A stretch of DNA of 26,305 nt. Origin: a virus. A program made the position numbers and the translations under genes. Where the stretch lies: the IMG/VR virus record IMGVR_UViG_3300020057_000140, positions 1 through 26,305 of that record. One strand, written 5' to 3'. The notes under the pieces are model-generated. The model was given only the letters and a program-made list of their open reading frames with translations. It had not been told where the DNA came from and made no database searches. The stretch's first letter is position 1, and each line of letters opens with the position of its first letter. Below are positions 721 to 22,290 of the stretch, one piece after another.

Positions 721-2517
721 ATGAGGCTTCGTGCACTACGTCTGCTCGGGATGGGAGTGGGCAAGTCCACGCCTCCTCCGGCCAACACAGTCGCACCTTC
801 CATCTCGCTGCCAGGGCTCTACGAAGTCGGCCAGACCGCCACCGTCAATCCGGGCACGTGGCTCAACGCGACGAGCTACGAGTATCGGTACTACTCCCGC
901 GCTGTGCTCATCGCGGGCGCATCGGCAGTCACCTACCAGCTCCTCGGCGCAGACCTTGGCGGAACCGGCCCCGCGCTCACGGCGACGCTCTTCGGCGATG
1001 CTACGGGCATCGGCCCTCCGCTGACTGCGGAGGTGCGTGCGACCGGACTTGGAGGCACGAGCGCATGGGTCGCGACATCGAACAGCCTGTCGTGCGCGTG
1101 GAGCCAGTACAGCGCGGTGATCCCGTTCATCATGGACGAGCGGGGGCAGACGTACACGGGCGCGAGCCTGGACTCCTGGGCCAGCCAGGGGTCGGTGGCA
1201 GCGACATTCACTGCGGCGGGTGCTGTTCGCCCCGTATCGGGCCGCACGATCAATGGCTGGGTCGCTCCTGACTTCGACGGCTCGGACGATCGGATGGTTG
1301 TAGGGTCCGTTAACACGCAGGCCATTATCGGGACCAACCCCACGAACTTGTACATGTGGCAGGTATCCGAATGGGACGAGTTCAGCGCCGTCGCAACCGT
1401 GGGCTTCCGCCCCGGGTGGCTTCAGAACGTAGGCTCGGGGAGCTTCGCGGGGCTCAACCAGCAAGACAACGCAGGTGTGTTCACGGCGCAGTGCACCCTC
1501 AACGGAGGCTCGTACGTCTCTTCGACGCAGGCCACGGCGGGCGAGACGGGTATCCACGTACAAGAGGCGGCGTTCTCAGGGGGCGAAATCGTCGGGCGCT
1601 GGGATGGTGTGAACATCCCCGCAGCAACGGTCGCCTCGATACCTGCCATCAGTACGATCGGCGGGGCGCTCGGTACACAGATCGGCGCGACCTACGCCTC
1701 CTCTCCGGCTGCCTGGTTCAACGGGGCAACGGCCATGCTGCTCGCCGCAGTCTCCTCAACCCCGCTGACTGCCACGCAACTGAACACGATCCGCGCGATG
1801 GTCGCGGGCAAGTACAACGTCACGACTGGCGTCGAAGATCCCTCACTCTACATCACATCGATCGCGCAGATCTCGAGTGCCAACAGTTTCAACAGCGCGA
1901 CTGCGACCAGGCCCACTGGGTCCACGTCAATGACGATTGCGGCAGTCTGCCGCAATCGCACGACGGCGAACCTCGTGCGCGAGTATCGGATCCGTCGATG
2001 GACGACAGCCACTCGCGGTTGGGTTTTCTACCCGATGCTCGACGGTGTGACGGCGCGGGCTCAAGGTGTAGTCGTCAACGCAGCGCTCGCAAACGTAGCC
2101 GAACCCAACACGTTCTCGCCGACACAGAACCTGCTCCAGCGAGTCGTCCTGGTGCTCGATGCAGACGTGCTTTCGGTGTATCGAAACGGCGCGCTGATGT
2201 CGACAGGAGCAGCCTGCGTAGGCTTCACAGCGCCAACATCCGAGTCGTTCTTCCTCCAAGGATCGGCCGTGCTAAATGACGAGTTCGAGCTTGTCTCGAT
2301 GGCGCTAGCCAACTCGACGGCCATGAGCGCTGCGCAGGTCGCAGCGTGGGACGCAGTCGTCGTAGCTGGCGGCTCGCGCAGCTTCACCGGAGCAACACAC
2401 CACTATGAGGCGGAAGACATCGTTGCGGGGGTGAACTGGACCGATCGCATCGCGGGCAACGTCCTGTCGATGGTGGGCGCGCCACTCAAGCGCATCTTCA
2501 AGCGGGTGTTCGAATGA
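721..2517 (+). CDS. tail fibre-like protein with Ig-like and two LamG-like domains
   Basis: 598 aa, first of two paralogues (with 2948-4819). It opens with a basic tag, MRLRALRLLGM. Next is an Ig-like fold of the type common in phage fibres (about residues 22-125: VGQTATVNPGTW, Y-E-Y-R-Y, LIAGASAVTYQLLGADLG). From W127 comes a concanavalin/LamG-like domain (about 130-370: FDGSDDRM, ending LNTIRAMVAGKYN), then a second beta-jellyroll of similar kind (about 375-585, with RVVLVLDADVLSVYRNGAL and a closing SAAQVAAWDAVV). LamG folds bind sugars or proteins, so host-surface binding is the likely role. The TGA overlaps the next ATG (2514-2517), indicating translational coupling. No membrane segment or protease motif seen. 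The fibre call is by domain style; homology searching was not possible. Confidence 0.75.
   Translation: MRLRALRLLGMGVGKSTPPPANTVAPSISLPGLYEVGQTATVNPGTWLNATSYEYRYYSRAVLIAGASAVTYQLLGADLGGTGPALTATLFGDATGIGPPLTAEVRATGLGGTSAWVATSNSLSCAWSQYSAVIPFIMDERGQTYTGASLDSWASQGSVAATFTAAGAVRPVSGRTINGWVAPDFDGSDDRMVVGSVNTQAIIGTNPTNLYMWQVSEWDEFSAVATVGFRPGWLQNVGSGSFAGLNQQDNAGVFTAQCTLNGGSYVSSTQATAGETGIHVQEAAFSGGEIVGRWDGVNIPAATVASIPAISTIGGALGTQIGATYASSPAAWFNGATAMLLAAVSSTPLTATQLNTIRAMVAGKYNVTTGVEDPSLYITSIAQISSANSFNSATATRPTGSTSMTIAAVCRNRTTANLVREYRIRRWTTATRGWVFYPMLDGVTARAQGVVVNAALANVAEPNTFSPTQNLLQRVVLVLDADVLSVYRNGALMSTGAACVGFTAPTSESFFLQGSAVLNDEFELVSMALANSTAMSAAQVAAWDAVVVAGGSRSFTGATHHYEAEDIVAGVNWTDRIAGNVLSMVGAPLKRIFKRVFE
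733..753 (+). repeat. 21-bp repeat at 5' end of fibre gene, copy 1
   Basis: This 21-base stretch (GCACTACGTCTG then CTCGGGATG) lies in codons 5-11 of the first fibre gene and is identical to 2960-2980 in the second. Flanking bases still encode MRLRALRLLGM in both but differ at synonymous positions, so the identity is higher than coding alone requires. Confidence 0.85.
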
Positions 2518-2951
2518 AAGAGTCCACCGCCGTTGTGCTCGTGCGCGAGTTTGCGACGCGTGAGGGGGCCGATGCCTACGCTCGCGAGCACGAAGGCAAG
2601 ACGTTCACGCGGTATTGGACCGTGGCCGAGATGCGGCAGCGCACCCTGAACTGGGCGCGTGACTACGCGATCGAGCAGGCGACGGGCAAGCCCGAGTGGG
2701 CCACGCGCATGCTCGACCTGTGGCTCACCGACGTGAGCTTCCGCGCGCGAGCAGAAGACCCGATCGAGCCCTACGAGGGCAAGGACGGCAAGTGGTACGC
2801 AGGCGTGCCCGATACGCTCAAGCAGGTGGAGATCTACGACTCTGTCGAGGAGCGGACCGTTACCATCGACGTCAAAGTCGTGGCGACCGACGCGCTGGCC
2901 AAGGCCGTCGATGCAGATGAGGTAGTTCTCGCCGGGGCTCGCCTTCCGTGA
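2514..2951 (+). CDS. uncharacterised protein between paralogous fibres
   Basis: 145 aa. Its ATG overlaps the stop of the first fibre (ATGA), and its TGA overlaps the GTG of the second fibre (GTGA), so all three genes form one coupled unit. The sequence is mixed alpha/beta and charged: an N-terminal strand-helix (AVVLVREFATREGADAYAREHEG), an aromatic/Arg-rich helical centre (W-A-R-D-Y, W-A-T-R-M-L-D-L-W-L), and a C-terminal strand pair (RTVTIDVKVVATDA). No catalytic motif or signal peptide seen. The position suggests an accessory of the fibres, such as a fibre-assembly chaperone or a small virion partner, but that rests only on context. Confidence 0.7.
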   Translation: MKESTAVVLVREFATREGADAYAREHEGKTFTRYWTVAEMRQRTLNWARDYAIEQATGKPEWATRMLDLWLTDVSFRARAEDPIEPYEGKDGKWYAGVPDTLKQVEIYDSVEERTVTIDVKVVATDALAKAVDADEVVLAGARLP

Positions 2952-4819
2952 GGCTGAGGGCACTACGTCTGCTCGGGATGCAGCGAGGGGATATCCGCCT
3001 CCTGGCTCCCTTGCCTACCAACCTCGTCGCGCCGACGGTTTCGATACCCACCTACGAGGTGGGAGCGATCGCAACGGTCGACCCGGGGATCTGGGTCGAC
3101 GCATCCGAGTTCCATGGGCAGTGGCACATCCGAGGGGTGCTGATTCCAGGCGCGGTGGGGCTCACCTACCAGCTCCTGGGCAGTGAGCTTGGGGGCATAG
3201 GCTCGATAGCCACCGAGGCGCTCTTCGCCGATGCGAGCGGCTTTCCTCCACTCACGTGCGCGGTCTACGGGATCGGCACCAACGGCACCAGCGCCGCCTC
3301 CACGATCAGCTCGAACAGCGTGAGCTTTTCATGGAGCCAGTACGCCTCGCAGGTTGTCCTGCGCCTGGACGAGAGCGCCATCGCGTCCTCTGCAGGTAGG
3401 GTCGACTCATGGACCAATCAAGGCGCAGTGGCGGCGGTCTACTCGCACACGGGAGCAAACCGCCCGGCGACGGGCACGCTTGCGGGCTGGGCCGCAGTCG
3501 ACTTCGATAACCCTGCCGATCCTTCGACGCAGGATAAGTTCCTTCGCGCGACCACTGTGCATATGCAGGATCTCGTGGGGGCCAACCCCACGAACGTCAT
3601 CGCTTGGATGGTGGCCGACTGGCGCGCCTTCGACGTGGATTCGAGCGCAAGCGGCAGGCCCGCGATCATTTCTGACGTCGGGGGCTCGAAGTTCATCCTG
3701 GGCACGCAACGCAACAACGCAGGCTCTCTATCGGTCACAAACACCGTCACGGGCGTGACGAACACTGAAACGCAGACCAACAACGTCCTCTCGGAGACGG
3801 GCCTTCACGTGCAGGAGTGCAGGCTCCACCAGTCCCAGCTGATGAATCGCTGGGACGGCGTAGACAATACGGCCAGCCCGGGCGCGCTCACGGCAGTCAC
3901 AAACATCACAGCAGTCAACGGGACGCGTATCGGCGCCGAGACCAACGTCACGGTGAACCATGCGTTGCGCGGGGTCATCGGCACTGTCGTTTTGTGGAAC
4001 AGCGCGGCGGCCATCACGCCTACGCAGATCAACACGATCCGCGCCGTGCTCAAGGGCAAGTACGGCGCGCTGACGGGTATCGAGAATCCCGCGAACTACG
4101 TTGCTGCTGTTGCCCTCATCTCGAGCGCGAACACCTACAGCAGCTCGCTCGCAGGCAGACCCACGGGCAGCGCCTACTTCACGGCTGCGCTCGTGTGGCG
4201 AAAGACGACGGCAGCAGCTACGAGCATGGTGAGGAACTACTCGGCGGCGCGCGGGACCACCCTCACCTCCACCACCAGGACAGGGTTTTTGGCGAGGGTC
4301 AGAGACAACGCTGCTGTTCCAGGTAGCTCGGTTCGCTTCGGCACCGCGATCGGCCGCGCCGATACCACCACGCTTGCTACTGACGCCTTCCCGCTGATCA
4401 CGCAGAACGCGATTCAAAGGACTGTCGTCGTCTACGACAACGGAGTCGTGTACATGTATCTCAACGGCGTGCTCGTGAAGACCGATAACCAAGGCACGCT
4501 GAGCGTCCCCGCAGGGGTTACTGGGTACAACCCTCCCGTGGCGGAGGCATTCCTGCTCGCCTCAGCTTCGGCGAGTGTGACCGATGAGTTCGAGCTGGTC
4601 TCGATGGGATTTGCCGACGACGTCGCGCTCTCAGCAGCCGAGGTCGCCGCGTGGGATGCCGTCGTTGCGGCCAAGGGCAGTCGCGCCTTTGCAGGGGCCG
4701 ACTTCCACTGGGAGGGCGAAGACGCGGGCTCTACGTGGACTGACCGGATCGCAGGCCACGTGCTCACGAGGACGGGCTCGCTCGCTGTGGCGCGCAAGTT
4801 CGTCGGCATCTACAGCTAG
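2948..4819 (+). CDS. tail fibre-like protein, paralogue of the upstream fibre
   Basis: 623 aa from GTG overlapping the previous stop. Same plan as the protein at 721-2517: basic tag MRLRALRLLGM, Ig-like domain (about residues 25-127; EVGAIATVDPGIW, LIPGAVGLTYQLLGSELG), LamG-like domain from W129 (ending LRAVLKGKYGALTG near 375) and a second jellyroll (about 385-600; ending AEVAAWDAVVAAKGSRAFAGADFHWEGEDAGSTWTDRIAG). Signature segments match the first copy (TYQLLG, WSQY, NTIRA, DEFELVSM, WTDRIAG), while loops have diverged strongly. This is what tandem duplication followed by receptor-driven divergence would give. The downstream 56-base gap precedes an unrelated gene, so the third gene of the unit was not duplicated. 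Confidence 0.75.
   Translation: MRLRALRLLGMQRGDIRLLAPLPTNLVAPTVSIPTYEVGAIATVDPGIWVDASEFHGQWHIRGVLIPGAVGLTYQLLGSELGGIGSIATEALFADASGFPPLTCAVYGIGTNGTSAASTISSNSVSFSWSQYASQVVLRLDESAIASSAGRVDSWTNQGAVAAVYSHTGANRPATGTLAGWAAVDFDNPADPSTQDKFLRATTVHMQDLVGANPTNVIAWMVADWRAFDVDSSASGRPAIISDVGGSKFILGTQRNNAGSLSVTNTVTGVTNTETQTNNVLSETGLHVQECRLHQSQLMNRWDGVDNTASPGALTAVTNITAVNGTRIGAETNVTVNHALRGVIGTVVLWNSAAAITPTQINTIRAVLKGKYGALTGIENPANYVAAVALISSANTYSSSLAGRPTGSAYFTAALVWRKTTAAATSMVRNYSAARGTTLTSTTRTGFLARVRDNAAVPGSSVRFGTAIGRADTTTLATDAFPLITQNAIQRTVVVYDNGVVYMYLNGVLVKTDNQGTLSVPAGVTGYNPPVAEAFLLASASASVTDEFELVSMGFADDVALSAAEVAAWDAVVAAKGSRAFAGADFHWEGEDAGSTWTDRIAGHVLTRTGSLAVARKFVGIYS
2960..2980 (+). repeat. 21-bp repeat at 5' end of fibre gene, copy 2
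   Basis: Exact copy of 733-753, at the same codon positions of the second fibre gene. It may be a trace of the duplication, or a conserved nucleic-acid signal at the fibre gene starts. Confidence 0.85.
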
Positions 4820-4875: not shown

Positions 4876-5322
4876 ATGGAACTGCAGGGGCATTCAGCAG
4901 GGAGAAAGCGCATGGACGGCGGAGCGATTCGAGCAACAGATGTGGAAGCGCACGAGCATATCGCCAAGCTCGAAGCGCGCGTAGTCGCCCTCGAGCAGGA
5001 GGCTCAGCGCCTGGCGCGGAGCGTGGTGGTCGACGAGCGCGTAGGCGCCCTGCCCTATCGGCCCGGCGTGGTGCGACTGGCGACGCCCTGGACGAGCGAA
5101 GAAGCGGCCCTCGCCGACTTCATCCGTAGGGCGACCGGCTACGACCCGACCGCGACCGCGACGCACCTGACGTTCCGCCCGAGCCGCGACGAGGAGACGA
5201 CCATCGAGGTGCCTTTCCTCAAGGACAAGAGGCACCGCATCATCGCGCTGCGGGACGCCATGCTCGACGTCAGGCGGGCGTTCGTGCCTCGCGAGGGGGA
5301 ACCCTTGCAGCTGCCCGAATGA
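4876..5322 (+). CDS. coiled-coil protein, function unknown
   Basis: 148 aa. GGGAGG at 4863-4868, seven bases before the ATG, supports this start; a second ATG at 4912 would remove 12 residues. Residues ~22-50 form a short heptad-like helix (VEAHEHIAKLEARVVALEQEAQRLARS), likely an oligomerisation coil. The rest is a charged alpha/beta region with a WTSEEAALADFIRRATGYDP helix and a C-terminal Arg-rich helix. It lies between the second fibre and the GroES-like gene, all co-directional. No catalytic motif visible. Possibilities include a small structural or regulatory protein; nothing in the sequence decides. Confidence 0.65.
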   Translation: MELQGHSAGRKRMDGGAIRATDVEAHEHIAKLEARVVALEQEAQRLARSVVVDERVGALPYRPGVVRLATPWTSEEAALADFIRRATGYDPTATATHLTFRPSRDEETTIEVPFLKDKRHRIIALRDAMLDVRRAFVPREGEPLQLPE

Positions 5323-5355: not shown

Positions 5356-5673
5356 GTGGACGCCAACATCACGCCTATCGCCGATCGAGTCCTTTGCCGA
5401 GCGCTACCCAATCCATCAAGTATCGGAAGCGTCCTGGTGCCCCTGGGCTATGAGGGAAGGCTCACGCGGGCTGAGGTGGTCAAGGTGGGCCTCGGAGGCT
5501 GGCGGGGCAGCGTGCGCGTCCCTCCAGGCGTGAGACCGGGCGACGTGGTCCAGTTCGACGGCTCAGGCATCGATTGGGTGCTCGGCCAGGAGATGGTGGG
5601 CAGCCCCGTACCGCGTGCAGGCGACTACTTCATCATCAGGCAGGAGCGCATCCACGGCGTGGTGACCGGATGA
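5356..5673 (+). CDS. GroES/Cpn10-like co-chaperonin
   Basis: 105 aa from GTG, with GAGGAG at 5344-5349 as ribosome-binding site. Length and pattern fit the Cpn10 fold: an opening ITPIADRVL strand (GroES has IRPLHDRVI), a Ser/Gly-rich segment at about residues 18-31 ending S-V-L-V-P that matches the mobile loop and its hydrophobic GroEL-binding triplet, then RAEVVKVGLG (GroES: RGEVLAVGNG), a PGDVVQFDGSG turn (GroES: VGDIVIFNDGYG), and a terminal DYFIIRQERI strand (GroES: DILAIVE). GroES caps GroEL in ATP-driven folding; phage versions such as T4 gp31 adapt host GroEL to fold capsid protein. No GroEL gene lies in this window. It sits just before a hairpin terminator. Confidence 0.72.
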   Translation: MDANITPIADRVLCRALPNPSSIGSVLVPLGYEGRLTRAEVVKVGLGGWRGSVRVPPGVRPGDVVQFDGSGIDWVLGQEMVGSPVPRAGDYFIIRQERIHGVVTG

Positions 5674-5881: not shown

Positions 5882-6226
5882 ATGGCCACCAAAGACGTCA
5901 ACCCTGGGATCTGGGACGCGATCGAGTCGCTCCTTTACGAGCTGGGCGACGTCGAGAGGATCGTGATCACCGACGTCTGCTCCGAGGACGGTGGTGAGTA
6001 CCCCGAGCTGCCACGTGGAGATCTTCCTGACGCGTGGTCGGCACGCCGCGGCGAAAGGCAAGGGGGTCCATGTCCAGCTCGGGCAAGCCATGGCAAGGAC
6101 GCCTACGCGAACGCGGAGACCAACTTGCCTCCCGATAGACCGCACAAGAAGCCCAAGCCCAAGCCCAAGCCCAAGCCCAAGACGAAGACGAAGACGAAGA
6201 CGAAGACGAAGAGGAAAAAGTCATGA
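5882..6226 (+). CDS. unknown protein with Lys-Pro/Lys-Thr repeat tail; reading frame doubtful
   Basis: 114 aa as written. Residues 1-37 (MATKDVNPGIWDAIESLLYELG...) look like real helical coding sequence, and the tail is a basic (KP)n(KT)nKRKK run that may bind nucleic acid or act as a flexible linker. In the middle (about 5990-6090) third positions of this frame fall to about half G/C, while the +1 frame is about 80% G/C and reads sensibly (CHVEIFLTRGRHAAAKGKGVHVQL). Then the original frame regains G/C-rich third positions. This pattern suggests two compensating indels or recoding, so the true protein may be a frame mosaic. The stop overlaps the next ATG (ATGA), arguing that the C-terminal frame is right. 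Confidence 0.5.
   Translation: MATKDVNPGIWDAIESLLYELGDVERIVITDVCSEDGGEYPELPRGDLPDAWSARRGERQGGPCPARASHGKDAYANAETNLPPDRPHKKPKPKPKPKPKTKTKTKTKTKRKKS
6152..6211 (+). repeat. two tandem hexanucleotide arrays, (CCCAAG)5 then (ACGAAG)5
   Basis: Five exact CCCAAG units (6152-6181) run directly into five exact ACGAAG units (6182-6211). In frame they encode Pro-Lys and Thr-Lys dipeptides. Perfect short tandem repeats are prone to slippage, so copy number may vary between related phages. Confidence 0.95.
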
Positions 6227-6456
6227 CCGATACCCGCATCCGCAGAGAGTTCGAAGTGCACCTGCTGAACGAGGAGGGGATCCAGGTCGCCGAGTTCGTG
6301 AGCAAGGCCTTCAGCAATCTGCTGGACACGCTTGAGCAGTACGTGGGCAAGGAAGGCCGCGAGATGGCCATCGCGTGCAGCAAGCTCGAAGAGGCCTCGT
6401 TCTACGCCAAGCGAGCCAATGCGCTCAACCCGCACCGGCAAGCAGAGCCGAAGTGA
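6223..6456 (+). CDS. Acb2/Tad1 hairpin-like small protein, candidate anti-CBASS/anti-Thoeris sponge
   Basis: 77 aa, starting in an ATGA overlap. The body is two helices: residues ~18-40 (GIQVAEFVSKAFSNLLDTLEQYV) and ~45-66 with GRE-x-A-x2-x-S-KLEEA-x2-x-AKRA. The GRE...KLEEA...(W/Y)A..A signature is the hallmark of the Acb2/Tad1 helical-hairpin family of phage proteins; the upstream HLLNEEG strand-turn is also typical of that family. Acb2 binds cyclic nucleotides made by CBASS, and Tad1 binds cyclic ADP-ribose signals of Thoeris, preventing abortive death of the infected cell. The family also contains many members with no tested activity, so ligand and function are inference. The gene lies in the accessory region, as expected for anti-defence genes. 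Confidence 0.65.
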   Translation: MTDTRIRREFEVHLLNEEGIQVAEFVSKAFSNLLDTLEQYVGKEGREMAIACSKLEEASFYAKRANALNPHRQAEPK

Positions 6457-6899
6457 GCGACGAAGGAACCGCGGAGTGGAGCGCGACATGCCGTGCGGAG
6501 GAGGCCAGGGCGCGGCGATGCGGAGCGGCAGCGAGCGAGGCGATGTCCGCCCTCGCGAATGGCCCATTCCTTGGCGCCGTTGCCCTGACGGAGGCGGAAT
6601 GGGGAAGGGCCACGCACATGGCCCAGGTGTACGACACGTGGGCGGCGATCGCGTCGGTCTGGGACGAGGCCGCGAGGCATCCGCAGACGACGTCCTGGGC
6701 GAGCGCGGAGATGGAGGCGCTCGACTCGGACGTGTCGCTGCGCCAAAGGGCGCGCGCGCTGCTCGCCGAGCAACCGCTCCATCCGGGGGTCACCGTGCTC
6801 CTGGCGGCCGCGGCAGTCGCGAGAGTGAGGGCGGCCGCATGGCGTGATGTGCTACGCGCCTGCATTCGAAGCGAGGAGCGAGGTCAGAGGGCGCGCTAG
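6453..6899 (+). CDS. helical protein of unknown function
   Basis: 148 aa from GTG in a GTGA overlap with the previous stop; an upstream in-frame ATG at 6375 lies inside the preceding gene and is rejected. The protein is Ala/Arg-rich and helical, with a conserved-looking centre (MAQVYDTWAAIASVWDEAARHP) and a C-terminal Ala-rich helix. The neighbouring 55-aa ORF at 7197 has a somewhat similar patch (MAQELYEAWASEG), which may hint at relationship or be coincidence. Co-transcribed with the Acb2-like gene; no catalytic or metal-binding motif seen. Confidence 0.6.
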   Translation: MSDEGTAEWSATCRAEEARARRCGAAASEAMSALANGPFLGAVALTEAEWGRATHMAQVYDTWAAIASVWDEAARHPQTTSWASAEMEALDSDVSLRQRARALLAEQPLHPGVTVLLAAAAVARVRAAAWRDVLRACIRSEERGQRAR

Positions 6900-9283: not shown

Positions 9284-10930
9284 GTGGCAGGGCGGCCTCA
9301 GCTCCTGATCGATACGGCTGTCGTGGCGCAGCAGGCGGACCTCGAAATCCACCTGCTCGCCCCGAGCCGCGACCCGTACTGGCAGGACATCTACGACCGC
9401 ATGCTGAGAGAAGACCTCTGCTTCTTCGCAAAGGAGATCCTCAAGCTGCAGGTCGGCCCTCACATGGTCGACTGGGGCGAGATGGTGGCCAAGTACAGGC
9501 GCGTGGCCATCAACGCAGCGCGCGATCACAGCAAGTCGACGTTTTTCAGCTACGCGTATCCGATCTGGCGCGCATGGACCGAGCCTGGCGTCGAGATCTA
9601 CATCTTCAGCAAGACGCTCGATCAGGCGTGCGAGTTCCTCGACGCGATCATCTACGGCAAGCCCGGCCTGGCAGGCATGGTCGATATTCCCGAGCTGCAG
9701 CACCTCGTGCCTGGGTCCGAAGACTTCAAGAACAACCCACGCGTGAGGCTCAACAGGGCTGACGTGCGGTTCACCAACGGCTCGCGCATTCGCTGCGTCG
9801 GCTACGGCAAGGCGGTGCGAGGCAGGCACCCGAAGTATATCGTGCTCGACGATCCGCTCAACGACGAGGACATGTACTCGGAGATGGTGCGTCGCAAGAA
9901 CATCGGATACTTCCAGTCGGCCATCTCGAACATGGCCACGCCCGATGGCCAAGTCGTGTGCGTCGGCACGCCGTACCACGCGGGCGACCTCTGGGGGTAC
10001 CTGCGCAAAAACCCCGTCTACGTCTTCAAGCGCTACCCCGCGATCATCCGCGACAAGAAGACCGGGCAAGAGCGCGCGCTGTTTCCATGGCGCTGGTCGC
10101 TTGAAGCGCTCAAGACGAAGAAGCGCGAGATCGGTTCGGTCGCCTTCACGCGCGAGATCCTCGTCCAGCCCATCTCGGATGATTTGTCGATCTTCCCGAG
10201 CCACCTGTTCCCGCCGCTCTACGACTTTACGATGTGCATCCCGATGCGGCCCGCGCAGATCGCAGCGAGGGGCATCACCTCGACGTATATCGGAGTCGAC
10301 CTTGCGCGCTCGGCCAACGTGGGCGCCGACTTCTTCGTCATCTTCGTCATCGGCGTGGACGTCGACGAGAACCACTACATCCTCGACGTGCAGCGCACCA
10401 AGGGGCTGCCGTTCAAGCAGCAGCTGCAGCGCATCGAGATGGCAGGCAAGCGTTACGACCCCTCGCTCATTTTCATCGAAGCCAACTTCATGCAGCAGAT
10501 CTACACCGACGAGATGCGCCGCACGACCGATCTGCCGGTCAAGGGCTTCGTCACGCTCGCCACCAACAAGTACCCGCTCGATAAGGGCATCCCGGGCCTG
10601 CGCATCCTGCTCGAGAACGGCAAGATCATCATCCCTCGTGGCGATGAAGAGTCGCGCCGCATGACCGATGAGTGGATCGAGGAGTGCACGCAGTTCGGCT
10701 TCGTGAACGGCAAGCTCCAAGGCGCTGGGGACCACGATGACTTAGTCATGGCCTGGTGGTTCGCGTGCGAGGCCAAGAAGGCGGGCGGCTTTTCGTTCGC
10801 CATGGGCGACGCCAATGGCGAATCCACGAACGATTGGGGCGAGGAAGACGAAGGGGGCGAGGACTGGCAGGCCGTGATGTTGGGCGACGAGCGCGAGCGC
10901 GAAGGCGACGAGTCCGCGTTCGGCACCTAA
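9284..10930 (+). CDS. terL: terminase large subunit
   Basis: 548 aa from GTG. The ATPase half has a variant Walker A loop (A79-R-D-H-S-K-S-T86), a Walker B strand YIVLDD (185-190) followed by PLNDED, and a coupling motif VCVGTP (225-230). The nuclease half has the RNase H-like acidic set: IGVDLARS (D339), FIEAN (E399) and GDHDDLVMA (D483-D486). Together these define a phage large terminase, which pumps DNA into the prohead and cuts the concatemer; both active sites look intact. The tail after ~500 is acidic and likely disordered. The small subunit is not obvious among upstream genes. The start is near-contiguous with the preceding gene. Confidence 0.96.
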   Translation: MAGRPQLLIDTAVVAQQADLEIHLLAPSRDPYWQDIYDRMLREDLCFFAKEILKLQVGPHMVDWGEMVAKYRRVAINAARDHSKSTFFSYAYPIWRAWTEPGVEIYIFSKTLDQACEFLDAIIYGKPGLAGMVDIPELQHLVPGSEDFKNNPRVRLNRADVRFTNGSRIRCVGYGKAVRGRHPKYIVLDDPLNDEDMYSEMVRRKNIGYFQSAISNMATPDGQVVCVGTPYHAGDLWGYLRKNPVYVFKRYPAIIRDKKTGQERALFPWRWSLEALKTKKREIGSVAFTREILVQPISDDLSIFPSHLFPPLYDFTMCIPMRPAQIAARGITSTYIGVDLARSANVGADFFVIFVIGVDVDENHYILDVQRTKGLPFKQQLQRIEMAGKRYDPSLIFIEANFMQQIYTDEMRRTTDLPVKGFVTLATNKYPLDKGIPGLRILLENGKIIIPRGDEESRRMTDEWIEECTQFGFVNGKLQGAGDHDDLVMAWWFACEAKKAGGFSFAMGDANGESTNDWGEEDEGGEDWQAVMLGDEREREGDESAFGT

Positions 10931-10974: not shown

Positions 10975-11424
10975 ATGAATCTCGCCGCGCGCTTTTGGTC
11001 GAAGGTTGTGAAGGGCTCCCGCAACGAGTGCTGGCTCTGGAAGGCCGGGAGAGTCCAGGGGTACGGTGCGTTTTGGTACAAGGTAGGGCCCGCACGCGCG
11101 CATCAGGTGTCATGGGAGCTGACGAACAAACGAGCGATCCCCAAGGGGCTGATCATCATGCACTCCTGCGATACGCCCCTCTGCGTGAACCCGAAGCACC
11201 TCATCCTCGGCACCCATCAACAGAACATCAGCGACCGGGACCAGAAGGGCCGCCAGCGCACGACCCACGGCACTGAGCACCCGCTCGCGAAGCTTAACGA
11301 CGACGACGTGCGCTTCATCAGGGCATCGCCCCTGGGGCAGCGAAAGCTCGCAGCGCAGTACGGCGTCTCGCAGTCCCTCATTCACCGGATACGCGCGCGG
11401 CTCTCCTGGGCTCACGTCGCCTGA
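10975..11424 (+). CDS. HNH homing-type endonuclease
   Basis: 149 aa. N-terminal ECWLWKAGR-x-QGYGAF, then RAHQVSWELTNKRAIPKGLIIMHSCDTPLCVNPKHLILGTHQQNISDRDQKGR: the classic small HNH nuclease with zinc cysteines (C65, C70) and catalytic His/Asn residues (H63, N72, H75). The C-terminal part (EHPLAKLNDDDVRFIRA...LAAQYGVSQSLIHRIR) is a helix-turn-helix DNA-reading module usual in free-standing phage homing endonucleases. Placement directly after the terminase gene is a common insertion site for such elements. All key residues are present, so it is probably active. The sequence just downstream (11425-11599) is a patchwork of short repeats, which fits a mobile insertion. Confidence 0.92.
   Translation: MNLAARFWSKVVKGSRNECWLWKAGRVQGYGAFWYKVGPARAHQVSWELTNKRAIPKGLIIMHSCDTPLCVNPKHLILGTHQQNISDRDQKGRQRTTHGTEHPLAKLNDDDVRFIRASPLGQRKLAAQYGVSQSLIHRIRARLSWAHVA
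11341..11357 (+). repeat. 17-bp direct repeat, copy 1 (inside HNH gene)
   Basis: CGAAAGCTCGCAGCGCA occurs here, near the end of the HNH gene, and again at 11492-11508. The copies are 151 bases apart and enclose the end of the HNH gene. Confidence 0.8.
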
Positions 11425-15065: not shown

Positions 15066-15469
15066 GCGACGGAGTCAAAGCGATCGCCCGAGCCCTGCAT
15101 CGGAAGATCATGCTCTCGATGCGGGCAGTCGCCGACAGCGAAGAGGACCCGATCGCGCAGGAGGCCACCGAGCAGCTCGCCAACCTCTACGACGCGTCCG
15201 AGAGCTGGCTCGATACACGGGACCTCGACGACGCGATCATCATCTCGCGCACCGTCGCGCTCAACGGATACAGGCAGGTGAGCGAGTCACGCCACGTGGC
15301 CCGCACGGTCGCCGAGTGCCTCGCAAACTACGCGCTCGGCGAGGCCAAGCTCTCGCGCGAAGTAGGCGGCGAGTTCGCATTGGCGCAAGCTTGCGCCTTC
15401 GACGCCTGCGCCAAAGAGGCCAGGCGCTACGCCGATGGGGAAAGAGACCATGCGCTTCGTAGTGGATAG
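15062..15469 (+). CDS. helical protein of unknown function, upstream of the RelA-like gene
   Basis: 135 aa, starting in an ATGA overlap. Almost wholly alpha-helical: KAIARALHRKIMLSMRAVADSEEDPIAQEATEQLANLYDASESWL, then TVALNGYRQVSESRHVARTVAECLANYALGEAKL and a Cys-containing helix AQACAFDACAKEARRYADG. It overlaps the ParB-like/RelA-like gene by 20-35 bases, so the two are coupled. If the downstream product is toxic in the producing cell, this gene would be the first place to look for a neutralising partner; that is pure context inference. Confidence 0.65.
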   Translation: MSDGVKAIARALHRKIMLSMRAVADSEEDPIAQEATEQLANLYDASESWLDTRDLDDAIIISRTVALNGYRQVSESRHVARTVAECLANYALGEAKLSREVGGEFALAQACAFDACAKEARRYADGERDHALRSG

Positions 15470-16613
15470 GCAGACGCTCGAAAAGGGCGTGGCTCGCGGC
15501 GGCAAGTACTATCGGCGCACGCCGACGGGCAACCCGAAGCGGCCGTGGCGCTACTACTACACGCGAGCAGACTACGAGCAGGCGCACGGCGAGCAGGCCC
15601 ACGTATCGGGATCCGAGGTCAAGCAGTCGAGGCAGAAGCTCCCCGATAGCCCGTGGCGCTACTTCCACAAGACTCCTGGCGCCCAGCTCATCCCGGTCAG
15701 CAAGCTCCTGGCGGCCCGCGCACGGCCCGAGGGCATCGCGAACGCCGCGGCGCACATGCAGAACGCGTTCGAGGGCAAAGGCGAGAAGCGAAAGCCGATA
15801 TCTCTTCGCGCCAACGGCGACGGCACCTTCACAGTGCTCGACGGCAACTCGACGACAGCGATGGCCCGAGCGGCCGACTGGAAGCACATCGTCGGCCGCG
15901 TCGAGCCCGCTCACACGCCCGCGCAGGAAAAGCGACACGCCTACCTCGAGAAGATGAAGGGCACCGTGCAGTCGTTCCGCGCAGCTCTCGCCTCGGGCAA
16001 GCTACAGGGCACCCTCGGCGAGCACGTGCGCACCGCGAAAAAGACTCTCGCCAAGCACCACGCGACGCTGCCCAAGCTCATATCGGACCTGCAGTCGCAC
16101 GCTCCCAAAGGGGCGAAAATCAAAGCTCGTGTCAAAGCGCTCGAGAGCGCGCTCGGCAAGCTCGACCGAAAGCCCAAGTACGGCACCGCGGCGAACCTGC
16201 AGGACTCGACGGGAGGACGCGTCGTCTGCGACTCGATCGCCGAAGTCGAGGCGACCGTCGCCAACCTGAAGAAGGCATACAAGGTCGTTACCGAGGACGA
16301 CTACATCTCCTCGCACCTCGATGGTTACAGGTCCTACCACCTCATTATCGAGCACGAGGGCCTCCAAAAGGAGATCCAGGTGCGAACGAAGAATCAGGAT
16401 ACGTGGGCAGACTTCGCGCACGACATCTACAAGCCGATGACCCCGAAGCAGGAGAAGGCCCTCGCCCAATCGAAGGCGGAGATCAAGGAATACTCGGCGA
16501 AGCTATCCGAATACATCTACGCCAAGGACCTCGGCAAAAAGCCTCCGCCCCCCATCCTACCCAAGTGCCCTGACGTCATCCCCGCCGCGTTCGGCGGATG
16601 CCCGAGCGTGTAA
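15435..16613 (+). CDS. ParB-like domain fused to RelA/SpoT-type (p)ppGpp synthetase-like domain
   Basis: 392 aa; ATG 15450 (after GGGGAAAGAG) is an alternative start. Residues 23-47 hold the K-Y-x2-R...W-x-Y-x-Y module also found in three neighbours (GGKYYRRTP...RPWRYYYTRADY). Residues ~85-158 match the ParB/sulfiredoxin-like domain (IPVSKLLAARARPEGI, VLDGNSTTAMARAADW). Residues ~228-335 match the RelA/SpoT synthetase core: R232-V-K234, K242, LQDSTGGRVV with the Mg-ligand position D257, an EDDYISSHLDGYRSYH loop with the nucleotide-stacking tyrosine position Y298, and E313-I-Q315-V-R-T. No HD hydrolase is present. Such synthetase-only proteins make (p)ppGpp or, in toxic forms, ppApp or modified tRNA. 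Product and role here are unknown. Confidence 0.78.
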   Translation: MGKETMRFVVDRQTLEKGVARGGKYYRRTPTGNPKRPWRYYYTRADYEQAHGEQAHVSGSEVKQSRQKLPDSPWRYFHKTPGAQLIPVSKLLAARARPEGIANAAAHMQNAFEGKGEKRKPISLRANGDGTFTVLDGNSTTAMARAADWKHIVGRVEPAHTPAQEKRHAYLEKMKGTVQSFRAALASGKLQGTLGEHVRTAKKTLAKHHATLPKLISDLQSHAPKGAKIKARVKALESALGKLDRKPKYGTAANLQDSTGGRVVCDSIAEVEATVANLKKAYKVVTEDDYISSHLDGYRSYHLIIEHEGLQKEIQVRTKNQDTWADFAHDIYKPMTPKQEKALAQSKAEIKEYSAKLSEYIYAKDLGKKPPPPILPKCPDVIPAAFGGCPSV

Positions 16614-17875: not shown

Positions 17876-20548
17876 ATGGACGCGCTCGATAGCCTGATGC
17901 TCCTCATGAAGGGCGACAAGAAGAAGGGCAAGTTCCCTGCCCCCAACGCCGACAAAGACTCGGACGGCGTGCCCGATAAGCCGCAAGGCGACCCCGAGGG
18001 CGACGGCGATGCGCAGGCCATGGCCGACGCGTACAACGGCGTGGTCGACAAGGACGACTCGGCTGACGTGGGCGACGAGGCTGCGGCCGGCGACGACAGC
18101 TTCGATGCCGCTGGCGGCGAGGGCGGCGACGAAGACGACGACAGCTTCGATGCCGCTGGCGGCGAGGGCGACGAAGGCGGCGACACCGACGGCGACGGCA
18201 TCGCGGACGACGAGGATGACGATCACGACGGCGACGGCATGAGCGACGACGAGGAGCTTGCCGACGTGGCCGATGGCGCAGGCGAGGGCGACTTCCCGGG
18301 CGGCGAGGACGAGCAGGGCGGAGGCAGCCCCGAGGTCGCGCAGCTGGTCATGAAGATCGCCGCGGCCGAGAAAGACTTCTACGCGGCCAAGGGCATGCAC
18401 GGCGCAGGGCACCACAAGGCCGAGGGCGCGATGGACGTGATGCACAAGCTCGTCCGCAAGCTCGTGCGGTCTATCGCGGGAGCGCACGGCGTCGACCCGA
18501 GCGCCAAGCCCGGCGAAGAGGGCGACGACTCGGGCAAGGCGCCTCCCTTCGGCAAGAAGCCTGGCGGCGAGGGCGATGAGGGCGCGCCGTCCAAGGCGCG
18601 CCCCTTCAAGGGCAAGAAGGACCGCAAGAGCAACCCCTTCGCCCGAGGCGATGATGGCGGCGACGGACCCGATGATCAGGACGAGCCCTCGGACGACAGC
18701 GACAGCGACAGCGACAGCGGCGACGAGGGCGACTCCGAGAAGAAGAAAAAGACCCCGTTCGGCAAGGCCGTCACGGGCGTCATGCAGATGCTCGGTCCCG
18801 TGGCACAGGACGTCCTGTGTAAGGCGGCGGGCCTGCCGCCCAAGCGCCCGACCCTGACGCATTCGCCTCGCCCTGCGGGACCCGCTGCGGGCGGCGGCTT
18901 CATCGACTGGGGCGCGGTCGTCTCAGCCAACGCGGACGGCAGCCCCGGCCACATGACCAAGAGCGAAGCGCCGGCCGCGCCGGCCATGGCGCGAGCAAGC
19001 GGAGGCAGCAGCGCGCAGGGCCCCGCGTCCCGCCGCATCACGATGCCCGGACTCGATAGCAACGGCTCGCCCCTGCGGCAGGCGGCGAGGGAGAAGCGAA
19101 TGAACGAAATCAATCACCCCGCTATCGAGCAGCCCATGCGCAAAGCAGCGCGCGTGGTAGTGACCGATGTGCCGAGGCTCGACGCGATCGACATGCTCAA
19201 GGCTGTGCTCGAGGGCGATAGGCAGGGCCAGCTCCGCAAGTCGGCTGGCCACAAGTACATCAGCCGCAAGCGCAACGTGCACGGCGGGTACGACTACGTC
19301 TACGAGCACCCGAAGACCAAGCAGAAGCACAAGTTCTCGACGTCACACCGCTCGTGGTCTACGGGCGAAGGCGACGCCCACCTCGAGCCCGGCTCGAAGT
19401 TTCACAACGTGACCAGCCGTGAAAAAGGCTCGGACTATCCTGATTCACAGGGGGGAGCCTCCGAATGGACCGAGCCTGGCGGCAAGAAGAAGAACAACAG
19501 CCACGCCCACGGTCATATCGGGGACGACCACATCAAGGCGATGCACGAGCACGCCTCGCGAGACACGCTGCGTCTCAAGGCCAAGAAGGACCGCTCGGGC
19601 GAGCGCGACAAGGCGCAGTACGGGCAAGTCGATGAGCAGGGCTCATTCCATGGCTCGGCCGTCGAGCACAAGGTTGCCTACGATCAGATGAAGAGCCCCC
19701 TCGGCTCGACGGTACCGGGCAAGTCGCGCGCTCACATGCTCAGCCCCTTGGGGCTGCATCACGCAGCCAAGCACGCGGCCAAGGTCGGAGACCGAAAAGC
19801 GCTCGATATGATCGGCAACGCGCTCCCTCGCGCTTCCTTCAGGCGGCCCTCTCAGTACACAGCACAATCAGAGCACGAGAGCGGCGCACGTGCGCTCGTC
19901 GAGAAGTACGGCACGGGAGGTTCGCGCGCGGAAAAGAGCATGGGCCGCGATGGCTCGGGCCGCGCGCTCCGCAAGGGATTCGATACGTACGAGCAGCAGT
20001 CGTCGAACCTGCCGGACGATCTGCTCTACGAGTACCTGATCGGCGCGATCGAGGAGTCGCTTCATTCGTCGATCCGCAAGAGCGACACGCAGCCGACCGG
20101 CCACATCATGGCCGACCTGCTCAAGGCAGCCCGCACCAACGGCGACCTCAAGCGCGCGCTCGGCACCTTCAGGGTCACCCAGTCGTCTATCGACTCGGTG
20201 CTCGCCGAGCGTGGCCTGCTCAAGTCGCAGGGGCAGTCCCTGAGCAACGGGCTCATCCCGGACGAGCGCCACTACACCCCGCAGGCGCCGTGGATGCGTC
20301 CCGGCGAGTACGTCGGCGTGGTGGTCGCGCCTCCTGCCGATAACAACGTCGCGCACCTGATCCGCGACGACAGGCTCGACCCTTGCCGCTCGCTCGCAGT
20401 GGCCCGAGCGGAGCAGCACCAGTCCCTCTGGAGGGGCGGTGACTCTCGGGCGCGCGTGAACTACGATGCCGCGTGTGCAGTGCACGGACGCGATATCTCG
20501 AAGTCGCAGAACCTCCACAACCCGTACGTGACCTGCAGCTGTAGCTGA
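17876..20548 (+). CDS. 890-aa acidic protein with Ca-binding-like repeats and KY-R-YxY module
   Basis: AGGAG at 17863-17867 fixes the start. Residues ~20-145 are very acidic with DxDxDG-type loops (DKDSDGVPD; DTDGDGIADDEDDDHDGDGMSDDEE), like thrombospondin type-3 calcium loops; within them a DDSFDAAGGEG unit occurs twice. A helical patch with many His and Lys follows (~155-200), then more acidic, low-complexity sequence (DSDSDSDSGDEGD). Residues 458-477 are the shared module G-H-K-Y-x2-R-x-R-x3-G-x-Y-x-Y-x-Y-E. The C-terminal third is more ordered (LPDDLLYEYLIGAIEESLH; RPGEYVGVVVAPPAD) and ends CAVHGRDISKSQNLHNPYVTCSC, a Cys/His tail I have seen in phage proteins. The gene lies just before portal, so a head or ejection role is likely. 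Function unknown. Confidence 0.7.
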   Translation: MDALDSLMLLMKGDKKKGKFPAPNADKDSDGVPDKPQGDPEGDGDAQAMADAYNGVVDKDDSADVGDEAAAGDDSFDAAGGEGGDEDDDSFDAAGGEGDEGGDTDGDGIADDEDDDHDGDGMSDDEELADVADGAGEGDFPGGEDEQGGGSPEVAQLVMKIAAAEKDFYAAKGMHGAGHHKAEGAMDVMHKLVRKLVRSIAGAHGVDPSAKPGEEGDDSGKAPPFGKKPGGEGDEGAPSKARPFKGKKDRKSNPFARGDDGGDGPDDQDEPSDDSDSDSDSGDEGDSEKKKKTPFGKAVTGVMQMLGPVAQDVLCKAAGLPPKRPTLTHSPRPAGPAAGGGFIDWGAVVSANADGSPGHMTKSEAPAAPAMARASGGSSAQGPASRRITMPGLDSNGSPLRQAAREKRMNEINHPAIEQPMRKAARVVVTDVPRLDAIDMLKAVLEGDRQGQLRKSAGHKYISRKRNVHGGYDYVYEHPKTKQKHKFSTSHRSWSTGEGDAHLEPGSKFHNVTSREKGSDYPDSQGGASEWTEPGGKKKNNSHAHGHIGDDHIKAMHEHASRDTLRLKAKKDRSGERDKAQYGQVDEQGSFHGSAVEHKVAYDQMKSPLGSTVPGKSRAHMLSPLGLHHAAKHAAKVGDRKALDMIGNALPRASFRRPSQYTAQSEHESGARALVEKYGTGGSRAEKSMGRDGSGRALRKGFDTYEQQSSNLPDDLLYEYLIGAIEESLHSSIRKSDTQPTGHIMADLLKAARTNGDLKRALGTFRVTQSSIDSVLAERGLLKSQGQSLSNGLIPDERHYTPQAPWMRPGEYVGVVVAPPADNNVAHLIRDDRLDPCRSLAVARAEQHQSLWRGGDSRARVNYDAACAVHGRDISKSQNLHNPYVTCSCS

Positions 20549-22290
20549 TGGCCCTCCGCGACGACCTCCGCGCTCTCGCCTCTACCTCGCTCTCGAAGGC
20601 GAGCGCGTGGGCGCGTGGGTCTGACGACGACGTCAGCCCCTCGATGATGAACGAGGTCCTCCGCAAGGCGGGCATGGGGCTGCCCGAGGCCACTGGCGAG
20701 CGCCCTCGCGCCATGTTCCACGACCCCTATGCGTCGATGGACTGGGGAGGCTGGCGCCAGCGCCCAAGCTCGATGACCTACGAGACGCTGCGCGTCATGA
20801 GCGTGCAGAACACCGTCATCGCCGCGATCATCAACCTACGCGTCCACCAGGTCTCCGCGTTCTGCAGGCCTCAGCAGGGGCGCTACGACCGAGGTTACCG
20901 GCTCATCCTGCGCGACCGACGCGACACCAAAAAGGGCATGAGCCCGGGCGAGCAGAAGGAAGCGCAGCGCATCGAGCGCATAATCGAGATGACGGGCGTG
21001 CTCCTGCCCGGCGAGAAGCCCTCGGACCGCGACAACTTCCGCAGCTTCATCAAAAAGAGCGTTCGCGACGTCCTGACGTACGACCAGATGTGCTTCGAGA
21101 AGATCCGCGATCGCGCCGGCCGCGTGAGTCGCTTCATCTCGCTGCCGTCCGAGACGATCCGCCCTGCGGTCACGGACATGGAGCACATGGAGCCTGCCGA
21201 GCTGCGCAGCCGCGTCTCGCACCTGCAGGTCTACGAGAGCACGATCATCGCTGAGTTCGGCCCTGACGATATCGCGTGGTGCATCATGAACCCGCGCTCG
21301 GACCTGCGAACCAACGGCTTTGGCTTCTCGCCTATCGAGCAGATCGTGTCCCTCGTGACGGCGTGGCTCTTCGGCTTTCAATACAACCAGAAGTTCTTCA
21401 CGCAGGGCTCGGCCATCAAGGGCCTGCTCAACATCAAGGGCGCGATTCCCGATAGGCAGATGCGCGCGTTCCGCCGCATGTGGTACGCGATGGTCTCGGG
21501 CGTCAACAACGCCTGGAAGACGCCCATCCTCAACAGCGAGGACGTGCAGTGGGTGCCCATGCACTCCACCAATCGCGAGATGGAGTACACGGCGTGGATG
21601 GACTGGCTGACCAAGCTGATCTGCGCGGTCTACGGCGTCGACCCGGTCGAGATCAACTTCATCTTCGGCAGCAACGGCACTGGCGGCGGCTCGACGCTCA
21701 ACAGCTCGAGGCCGAACGCGACCGAGGTCACCGAGAGCAAGGACAAGGGCCTGCGCCCGATCGTTTCGCACCTCGAAGATCACATCAACATGCACATCGT
21801 CTGGGAGATGAACCCCGACTTCGAGTTCGCCTTCACGGGGCTCGACGCCAAGGCCGAGGACAAGGAGCGCGATGGGCGCCTGGCCGAGGTCAAGGGGATC
21901 AAGACCGTCAACGAGGTGCGCGCTGAGATGGATCTCGAGCCGCTCCCGGACGGCCTCGGCGACGTCATCCTCGACAGCAACTGGATCCAGAACAAGTCGT
22001 CGGCCGAGCAGCCCCAAGAGGGCGGTGGCGGCGAGATGGGCGGGCCTCCTGGCGGCGCTCCCCCTGGACCGGATAACGGGGACATGCTCGAGGGCTCGGC
22101 CGAGAGCGAGCCTGAGGGCGACGGCGACGGCGACATGCTGGGCGGCTCGACCAAGCTCACCGGCGACGAGGACGACGATCAGCTGCTGGCGGCGTCAGAG
22201 ACCATGATGGGCAGCGTGCACGAGCTGCTCCGCAAGTCGGTCCGCCTCGAAGGTGGTCGGCAGTACATCGACATCGAGCTGAAGGAATAA
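20548..22290 (+). CDS. portal protein
   Basis: 580 aa; its ATG overlaps the previous TGA (TGATG). It shows the portal pattern: N-terminal SVQNTVIAAIINLRVHQVSAFC, a connector region (FRSFIKKSVRDVLTYDQMCFEKIRDRAGRVSRFISLPSETIRP), GPDDIAWCIMNPRSDLRTNGFGFSPIEQIVSLVTAWLFGFQYNQKFFTQGSAIKGLLNIKG, and NREMEYTAWMDWLTKLICAVYGVDPVEINF, which is the classic crown/stem stretch of HK97-type phage portals. The dodecameric portal sits at one head vertex, is the channel for DNA, and binds the terminase. Residues ~490-560 are acidic Gly/Pro-rich and likely disordered, followed by a conserved-looking end (SVHELLRKSVRLEGGRQYIDIEL). The MuF-type gene follows one gene later, as expected. Confidence 0.9.
   Translation: MALRDDLRALASTSLSKASAWARGSDDDVSPSMMNEVLRKAGMGLPEATGERPRAMFHDPYASMDWGGWRQRPSSMTYETLRVMSVQNTVIAAIINLRVHQVSAFCRPQQGRYDRGYRLILRDRRDTKKGMSPGEQKEAQRIERIIEMTGVLLPGEKPSDRDNFRSFIKKSVRDVLTYDQMCFEKIRDRAGRVSRFISLPSETIRPAVTDMEHMEPAELRSRVSHLQVYESTIIAEFGPDDIAWCIMNPRSDLRTNGFGFSPIEQIVSLVTAWLFGFQYNQKFFTQGSAIKGLLNIKGAIPDRQMRAFRRMWYAMVSGVNNAWKTPILNSEDVQWVPMHSTNREMEYTAWMDWLTKLICAVYGVDPVEINFIFGSNGTGGGSTLNSSRPNATEVTESKDKGLRPIVSHLEDHINMHIVWEMNPDFEFAFTGLDAKAEDKERDGRLAEVKGIKTVNEVRAEMDLEPLPDGLGDVILDSNWIQNKSSAEQPQEGGGGEMGGPPGGAPPGPDNGDMLEGSAESEPEGDGDGDMLGGSTKLTGDEDDDQLLAASETMMGSVHELLRKSVRLEGGRQYIDIELKE

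What the first reader, a model, noticed from the sequence alone, without database searches (positions are those of the whole stretch)
6223..6456. Candidate anti-CBASS or anti-Thoeris sponge of the Acb2/Tad1 hairpin type
The GRE-x8-KLEEA-x4-AKRA signature and the short two-helix size match that family. If correct the phage may neutralise cyclic-nucleotide-based defence, useful alongside an injected effector set.
Basis: partly seen in the sequence, partly recalled or inferred. Interest (0 to 1): 0.58.

Follow-up and report, generated by a model that had tools for sequence, protein, structure and literature searches.

The report
Phage sponge protein, Acb2/Tad1 hairpin family
This small phage gene encodes a member of a known family of proteins that soak up the alarm molecules bacteria use against viruses, so it most likely helps the phage escape bacterial immunity; it is a good catch but an ordinary member of that family.

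Summary
The 77-aa ORF at 6223-6456 (+) is a real gene and a genuine member of Pfam PF24729 (Acb2/Tad1 hairpin domain). Its Pfam score only just passes the curated cut-off (28.2 vs 27 bits), but a profile built without it gives 69.1 bits against 3.5 for the next window ORF and 12.6 for the best of 20,000 shuffles. AlphaFold2 gives a short N-terminal helix plus a two-helix hairpin (pLDDT 93.4). The best solved match, by sequence and by fold (Z 8.8, rmsd 1.9 over 67 residues), is PDB 9ptq, 'Acb2 homolog 43 in complex with 3'cADPR', a Thoeris signal. In a 96-sequence tree the gene lies in a 61-member, mostly metagenomic branch with 9ptq, apart from T4 Acb2 and the actinophage branch. I therefore favour an anti-Thoeris or dual sponge over a purely anti-CBASS one; the ligand and the hexamer were not tested. 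The gene sits in a variable region upstream of the terminase of an SPO1-like-portal phage fragment. New member of a known kind; interest modest.

The parts
6223..6456 (+). Acb2/Tad1-hairpin sponge gene, 77 aa
   Evidence: PF24729 28.2 bits over cut-off 27; held-out profile 69.1 bits; 57% identical relatives L012/L013; AlphaFold2 pLDDT 93.4
6210..6215 (+). Shine-Dalgarno-like AGAGGA, 7 bases before the ATG
   Evidence: read directly from the sequence
6250..6279 (+). N-terminal motif F10-x2-H13-x2-N16-x2-G19; F10 and G19 are invariant in the 61-member branch
   Evidence: column counts
6271..6345 (+). helix 1 of the hairpin (residues 17-41)
   Evidence: AlphaFold2 model
6358..6426 (+). helix 2 of the hairpin (residues 46-68), with R46 E47, S53, K54 L55 E56 E57 A58 and F60
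   Evidence: AlphaFold2 model; column counts
5882..6226 (+). upstream ORF, 114 aa with a KP/KT-repeat tail; its stop overlaps the sponge ATG (ATGA), suggesting translational coupling
   Evidence: no family match
6453..6899 (+). downstream ORF, 148 aa from a GTG that overlaps the sponge stop (GTGA)
   Evidence: read from the sequence and the frame; no family match

Best explanation
The gene makes a small stand-alone nucleotide sponge of the Acb2/Tad1 hairpin family, in the branch that holds 'Acb2 homolog 43'. Shown: gene, family, hairpin monomer, branch. Inferred from the family: the protein assembles into an oligomer, probably a hexamer, whose subunit interfaces form pockets that hold an immune second messenger tightly without cutting it. 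That keeps the messenger from the host's suicide effectors long enough for the phage to replicate. The most likely captured signal is a cyclic ADP-ribose of Thoeris (3'cADPR), possibly with cyclic di- or trinucleotides of CBASS as well. In a host with Panoptes the same protein could be a liability, because draining decoy nucleotides triggers that system.
For: Pfam PF24729 over cut-off, with none of the 14 control genomes over the cut-off. phmmer against PDB: 9ptq Acb2 homolog 43, E 1.2e-4. Family profile against PDB: 9ptq 4.9e-14, five Tad1 sequences at about 3e-5, T4 Vs.4/Acb2 0.087 (that profile includes the window row). Held-out profile and shuffles. Purifying selection. Model with a short N-helix and two long helices, the Acb2 protomer as described in passages of PMC10419184. 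VIA rows 1, 4, 6 and 8 of 50 are Acb2 entries, the first being 9ptq with 3'cADPR. In BFVD, 13 of the first 15 rows are named Acb2/Tad1 hairpin proteins. The 61-member branch including 9ptq has support 0.895. R46, K54, E56, E57, A58 and F60 are each present in 61 of 61 branch members.
Against: The Pfam margin is thin (28.2 vs 27 bits). Foldseek E-values are weak (best 0.73 in PDB, 0.013 in BFVD), and the tool warns that Z under about 13 can be mere resemblance for helical bundles. No ligand, oligomer or phage assay of this protein was found or could be run here. The T4 Acb2 ligand residues Y8 and F82 (PMC12657218 passages) align with H13 and A67 here, and T68 (PMC12657230 passages) with S53; this is the only branch member with Ser rather than Thr there (60 T, 1 S), so T4's specificity cannot be transferred. 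The 9ptq pocket residues were not available to me.
Confidence: 0.78

Rival explanations
1. It is a sponge whose main target is a CBASS cyclic di- or trinucleotide, as with T4/Pseudomonas phage Acb2, and it does not bind cADPR.
For: Same Pfam family; Acb2 entries 7uq2, 8h2x and 8h2j are among the VIA rows (Z 6.6, 6.2, 6.1).
Against: The closest solved relative by sequence and fold is the 3'cADPR complex; T4 residues Y8 and F82 are not kept.
Confidence: 0.3
2. It keeps the hairpin fold but has another job (for example regulator or scaffold) and binds no immune signal.
For: Direct data on this branch that I could see amount to one structure title (9ptq); sequence divergence from it is high (27% identity over 67 aligned residues).
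Against: The family's most conserved positions are kept (R46 E47, KLEEA, F60), and this branch contains the 3'cADPR-bound homologue.
Confidence: 0.1
3. The ORF is a chance reading frame in GC-rich DNA.
For: GC 65% gives many spurious ORFs: 215 of 40 aa or more in the window; the upstream part of the frame is a hexanucleotide repeat.
Against: Held-out profile 69.1 bits, shuffles at most 12.6; dN below dS and third-position differences in excess; 57% identical relatives in other contigs.
Confidence: 0.01

Closest known systems
Acb2 homolog 43 (PDB 9ptq, in complex with 3'cADPR)
   Same: Closest solved relative by phmmer (E 1.2e-4) and by fold (Z 8.8, rmsd 1.9 over 67); shares F10, H13, N16, G19, GRE and KLEEA and lies in the same tree branch.
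   Different: About 27% identity over the structural alignment; it sits in its own 0.993-supported twig with L125, L128, L131, L132 and L138. The paper I take to be its source was not held, so its ligand panel is unknown to me.
T4 Vs.4 / Acb2 (PDB 7uq2) and Pseudomonas phage Acb2 (8h2x, 8h2j)
   Same: Same hairpin family and protomer fold.
   Different: T4 has an insertion after the start of helix 1 and lacks GRE; T4 Y8 and F82 are H13 and A67 here; it lies outside the branch.
Tad1 (7uav, 8kbe-8kbh)
   Same: The C-terminal hairpin is homologous (family profile about 3e-5).
   Different: Those Tad1 chains are 123-138 aa with an extra N-terminal beta part (PMC12043709 passages); this protein is hairpin only.
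Actinophage 'cyclic nucleotide sequestering protein' (e.g. Mycobacterium phage StellaBean gp101)
   Same: Same family and similar small stand-alone size.
   Different: Separate branch with a PATT/PP-type N-terminal motif and mostly W at the position of Y61.

Membership tests
Acb2/Tad1 hairpin (PF24729) | profile match over the curated cut-off | tested here: met
   28.2 bits vs 27; 27.7 bits from six-frame DNA
Acb2/Tad1 hairpin (PF24729) | conserved GRE...T/S-KLEEA core | tested here: met
   R46, K54, E56, E57, A58, F60 present in 61 of 61 branch members; S53 replaces the usual T
[quoted passage not shown]
   helices 4-9, 17-41, 46-68, pLDDT 93.4; description of Acb2 from PMC10419184 passages
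Acb2 | compact homohexamer | not testable with these tools
   only single chains could be predicted
Acb2 | T4-type cyclic-dinucleotide residues Y8, T68 and F82 | tested here: not met
   they align with H13, S53 and A67; 9ptq has H, T and A there, so this marks a T4-type pocket, not the whole family
Acb2 | binds cyclic di-/trinucleotides and blocks CBASS | not testable with these tools
   needs binding and phage assays
Tad1 | N-terminal beta-sheet domain before the hairpin | tested here: not met
   the ORF has only 16 residues before helix 1 and no strand of 3 or more residues; no ATG/GTG/TTG lies in the open frame upstream
Acb2 homolog 43 branch (9ptq) | same clade and F-x2-H-x2-N-x2-G motif | tested here: met
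   61-member branch, support 0.895; motif shared
Acb2 homolog 43 branch (9ptq) | binds 3'cADPR | not testable with these tools
   inferred from the title of 9ptq only

The most novel reading that the evidence does not exclude
The 61-member, mostly metagenomic branch (F-x2-H-x2-N-x2-G plus KLEEA-[CS]-FFAKK) is a distinct sponge class in which the aromatic stacking residues of T4 Acb2 are lost and the pocket has been retuned from cyclic oligonucleotides to TIR-made ADP-ribose signals, possibly including some not yet assigned to any sponge.
Probability: 0.25. Interest if true: 0.5.

Novelty: new member of a known kind. Interest (0 to 1): 0.27.

Why it matters
It places a nucleotide-signal sponge in a GC-rich phage lineage with an SPO1-like portal, and shows that the branch containing the 3'cADPR-bound Acb2 homologue is widespread in uncultured viruses. 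If it binds cADPR, it shows which defence (Thoeris or CBASS) weighs on these phages' unknown hosts. It would also be a ready probe for Panoptes-like traps.

Tried and rejected
tblastn of the protein in 50,697 phage records gave nothing at E 0.1, and one weak plasmid hit, so the cultured-phage collection alone would have missed it. A single-sequence scan of IMG/VR found no relative; alignments did. NCBIfam and PADLOC have no model that matches it. A hairpin in L040 (17082-17270) scored E 0.049 with my profile but had no Pfam match at 0.01; not counted. I considered calling it Acb2 in the T4 sense and rejected that because the tested T4 ligand residues are not kept. I considered Tad1 and rejected that because the N-terminal beta domain is absent. 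Operon neighbours of the sponge (4876-5322, 5356-5673, 5882-6226, 6453-6899) have no homologue at E 1e-3 in the other loci held at that point, so context could not be used to infer function. The genome-contig scan found only 2 relatives (Herbidospora, Streptomyces) and does not give a host. Primary Acb2/Tad1 papers, and the Hadary preprint that I take (inference) to be the source of 'homolog 43', were not held; of the Hadary preprint I saw only its title in reference lists.

Full report
What is there. The ORF at 6223-6456 (+) is 77 aa, MTDTRIRREFEVHLL...GREMAIACSKLEEASFYAKRANALN.... An AGAGGA lies 7 bases upstream of the ATG, the ATG overlaps the stop of the ORF before it (ATGA), and the stop overlaps a GTG that opens the ORF after it (GTGA), as in a translationally coupled cluster. 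The window is a 26,305-base virus record of IMG/VR.

It is a gene and a family member. Pfam PF24729 'Acb2/Tad1, hairpin domain' matches residues 15-67 at 28.2 bits, cut-off 27; the 14 control genomes give no match over the cut-off, though weak matches below it do occur in 10 of 14 at E 10 and 2 of 14 at E 0.1. PHROG 1454 also matches (E 1e-5) but has no function. Because the Pfam margin is thin I made a profile from 17 relatives without the window: this ORF scores 69.1 bits, the next six-frame ORF of the window 3.5, and the best of 20,000 shuffles 12.6. Against the relative in L012, dN is 0.45 and dS 1.70, with codon-position differences 19/20/33 over 58 codons.

Relatives. Cultured phages give nothing directly. 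An alignment-based IMG/VR scan gave 20 loci and a second, built on window + L012 + L014 + the 9ptq stretch, 84 relatives of which 80 were kept. From all loci held, 117 ORFs matched at E 1e-4, 94 of them distinct. In a FastTree of these plus 9ptq and T4 Vs.4 (96 sequences) the window falls in a 61-member branch with 9ptq (support 0.895, midpoint-rooted), without T4 and without the actinophage group. F10, G19, R46, K54, E56, E57, A58 and F60 are invariant in that branch (61 of 61); N16 is N in 52 of 61. The 9ptq row is only the 57 residues that one search printed, and the sequences are short, so the support is indicative.

Structure. AlphaFold2 on an 18-sequence alignment: pLDDT 93.4, pTM 0.76, helices 4-9, 17-41, 46-68. 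This is the Acb2 protomer as described in the literature (PMC10419184, passages). VIA-align ranks 9ptq first (Z 8.8, rmsd 1.9, 67 aligned), with 7uq2, 8h2x and 8h2j at rows 4, 6 and 8; unrelated helical proteins reach Z 7.0, so the fold match alone would not convince. Foldseek in PDB puts T4 Vs.4 first but with E 0.73. In the BFVD library 13 of the first 15 rows are named Acb2/Tad1 hairpin proteins, best E 0.013.

Ligand. 9ptq is titled 'Structure of Acb2 homolog 43 in complex with 3'cADPR'. It is the closest solved relative by sequence too, which points to a Thoeris signal. Residues known from T4 Acb2 (Y8, F82, and T68, whose change lowers affinity; PMC12657218 and PMC12657230, passages) align with H13, A67 and S53. 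9ptq has H, A and T there, so the branch has a pocket that differs from T4's. I cannot say from sequence which signals are bound. Some sponge families bind several classes of signal (PMC12043709, passages).

Context. The window carries an SPO1-like portal (20548-22290), a terminase large subunit (9284-10930), an HNH endonuclease (10975-11424), a Cpn10/GroES-like gene (5356-5673) and a RelA/SpoT-domain protein (15435-16613). Portal relatives share the structural genes, but none of the loci matches the nine ORFs tested between 721 and 9282, other than the sponge itself, so the sponge lies in a variable region. Of 17 records taken from the 24 portal-relative loci, 1 has a PF24729 match (G013, L059); the 3 records added because of their sponge match as expected. 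All are treated as possible fragments, so absence means little.

Mechanism, shown and inferred. Shown: gene, family, hairpin monomer, branch. Inferred: oligomer, pocket, sequestration without cleavage, block of Thoeris and/or CBASS effectors. A possible cost is that sponges trigger Panoptes (PMC12657218, passages).

Verdict. The gene is a new member of a known family in a branch best linked to 3'cADPR. Whether this very gene has been reported was not searched for; my literature searches looked for the family and for 9ptq.

Noticed in passing
window 15435-16613 (+): 392-aa protein with a RelA/SpoT domain (PF04607, E 2.9e-17, residues 232-332), like small (p)ppGpp synthetases in PDB (6fgk, YjbM) and PADLOC PDC-S33. 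It lies upstream of the portal and has matches in 7 other loci, so an alarmone-type enzyme or toxin belongs to this phage lineage.
   Followed up: partly
window 5356-5673 (+): GroES/Cpn10-like co-chaperonin gene (Pfam 31.6 bits over cut-off 21.1) close upstream of the sponge.
   Followed up: partly
window 6149-6216: Two adjoining hexanucleotide arrays, (AAGCCC)5.5 and (AAGACG)6.3, encode a KPKP...KTKT tail of the ORF before the sponge and end at its ribosome-binding site.
   Followed up: no
L063:4407-5213 (+): The top-scoring relative (59% identity) is the C-terminal domain of a 268-aa ORF; its N-terminal part matches PHROG 38666 of unknown function and the next gene is a calcineurin-like phosphoesterase: a possible sponge fusion.
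   Followed up: partly
L015:2563-2772 and 2769-2999 (+): Two overlapping, diverged hairpin sponge genes side by side, as if for two signals.
   Followed up: no
L059:1459-1689 (+): Hairpin protein over the Pfam cut-off (40.2 bits) with the GRE and KLEEA core changed (GPD, KVREA), on a contig with a related portal: a degenerate or retuned sponge.
   Followed up: no
L121 stop-to-stop ORF at 4916: Hairpin domain at the start of a 286-residue open frame with a long C-terminal extension; possible fusion.
   Followed up: no
L053:8624-10765 and L055:1587-3694: Portal matches span over 2,100 bases for 564 residues, suggesting an insertion such as an intein or intron in the portal gene.
   Followed up: no
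window 721-2517, 2948-4819, 17876-20548 (+): Large ORFs (598, 623, 890 aa) without any Pfam, PHROG or PADLOC match.
   Followed up: no
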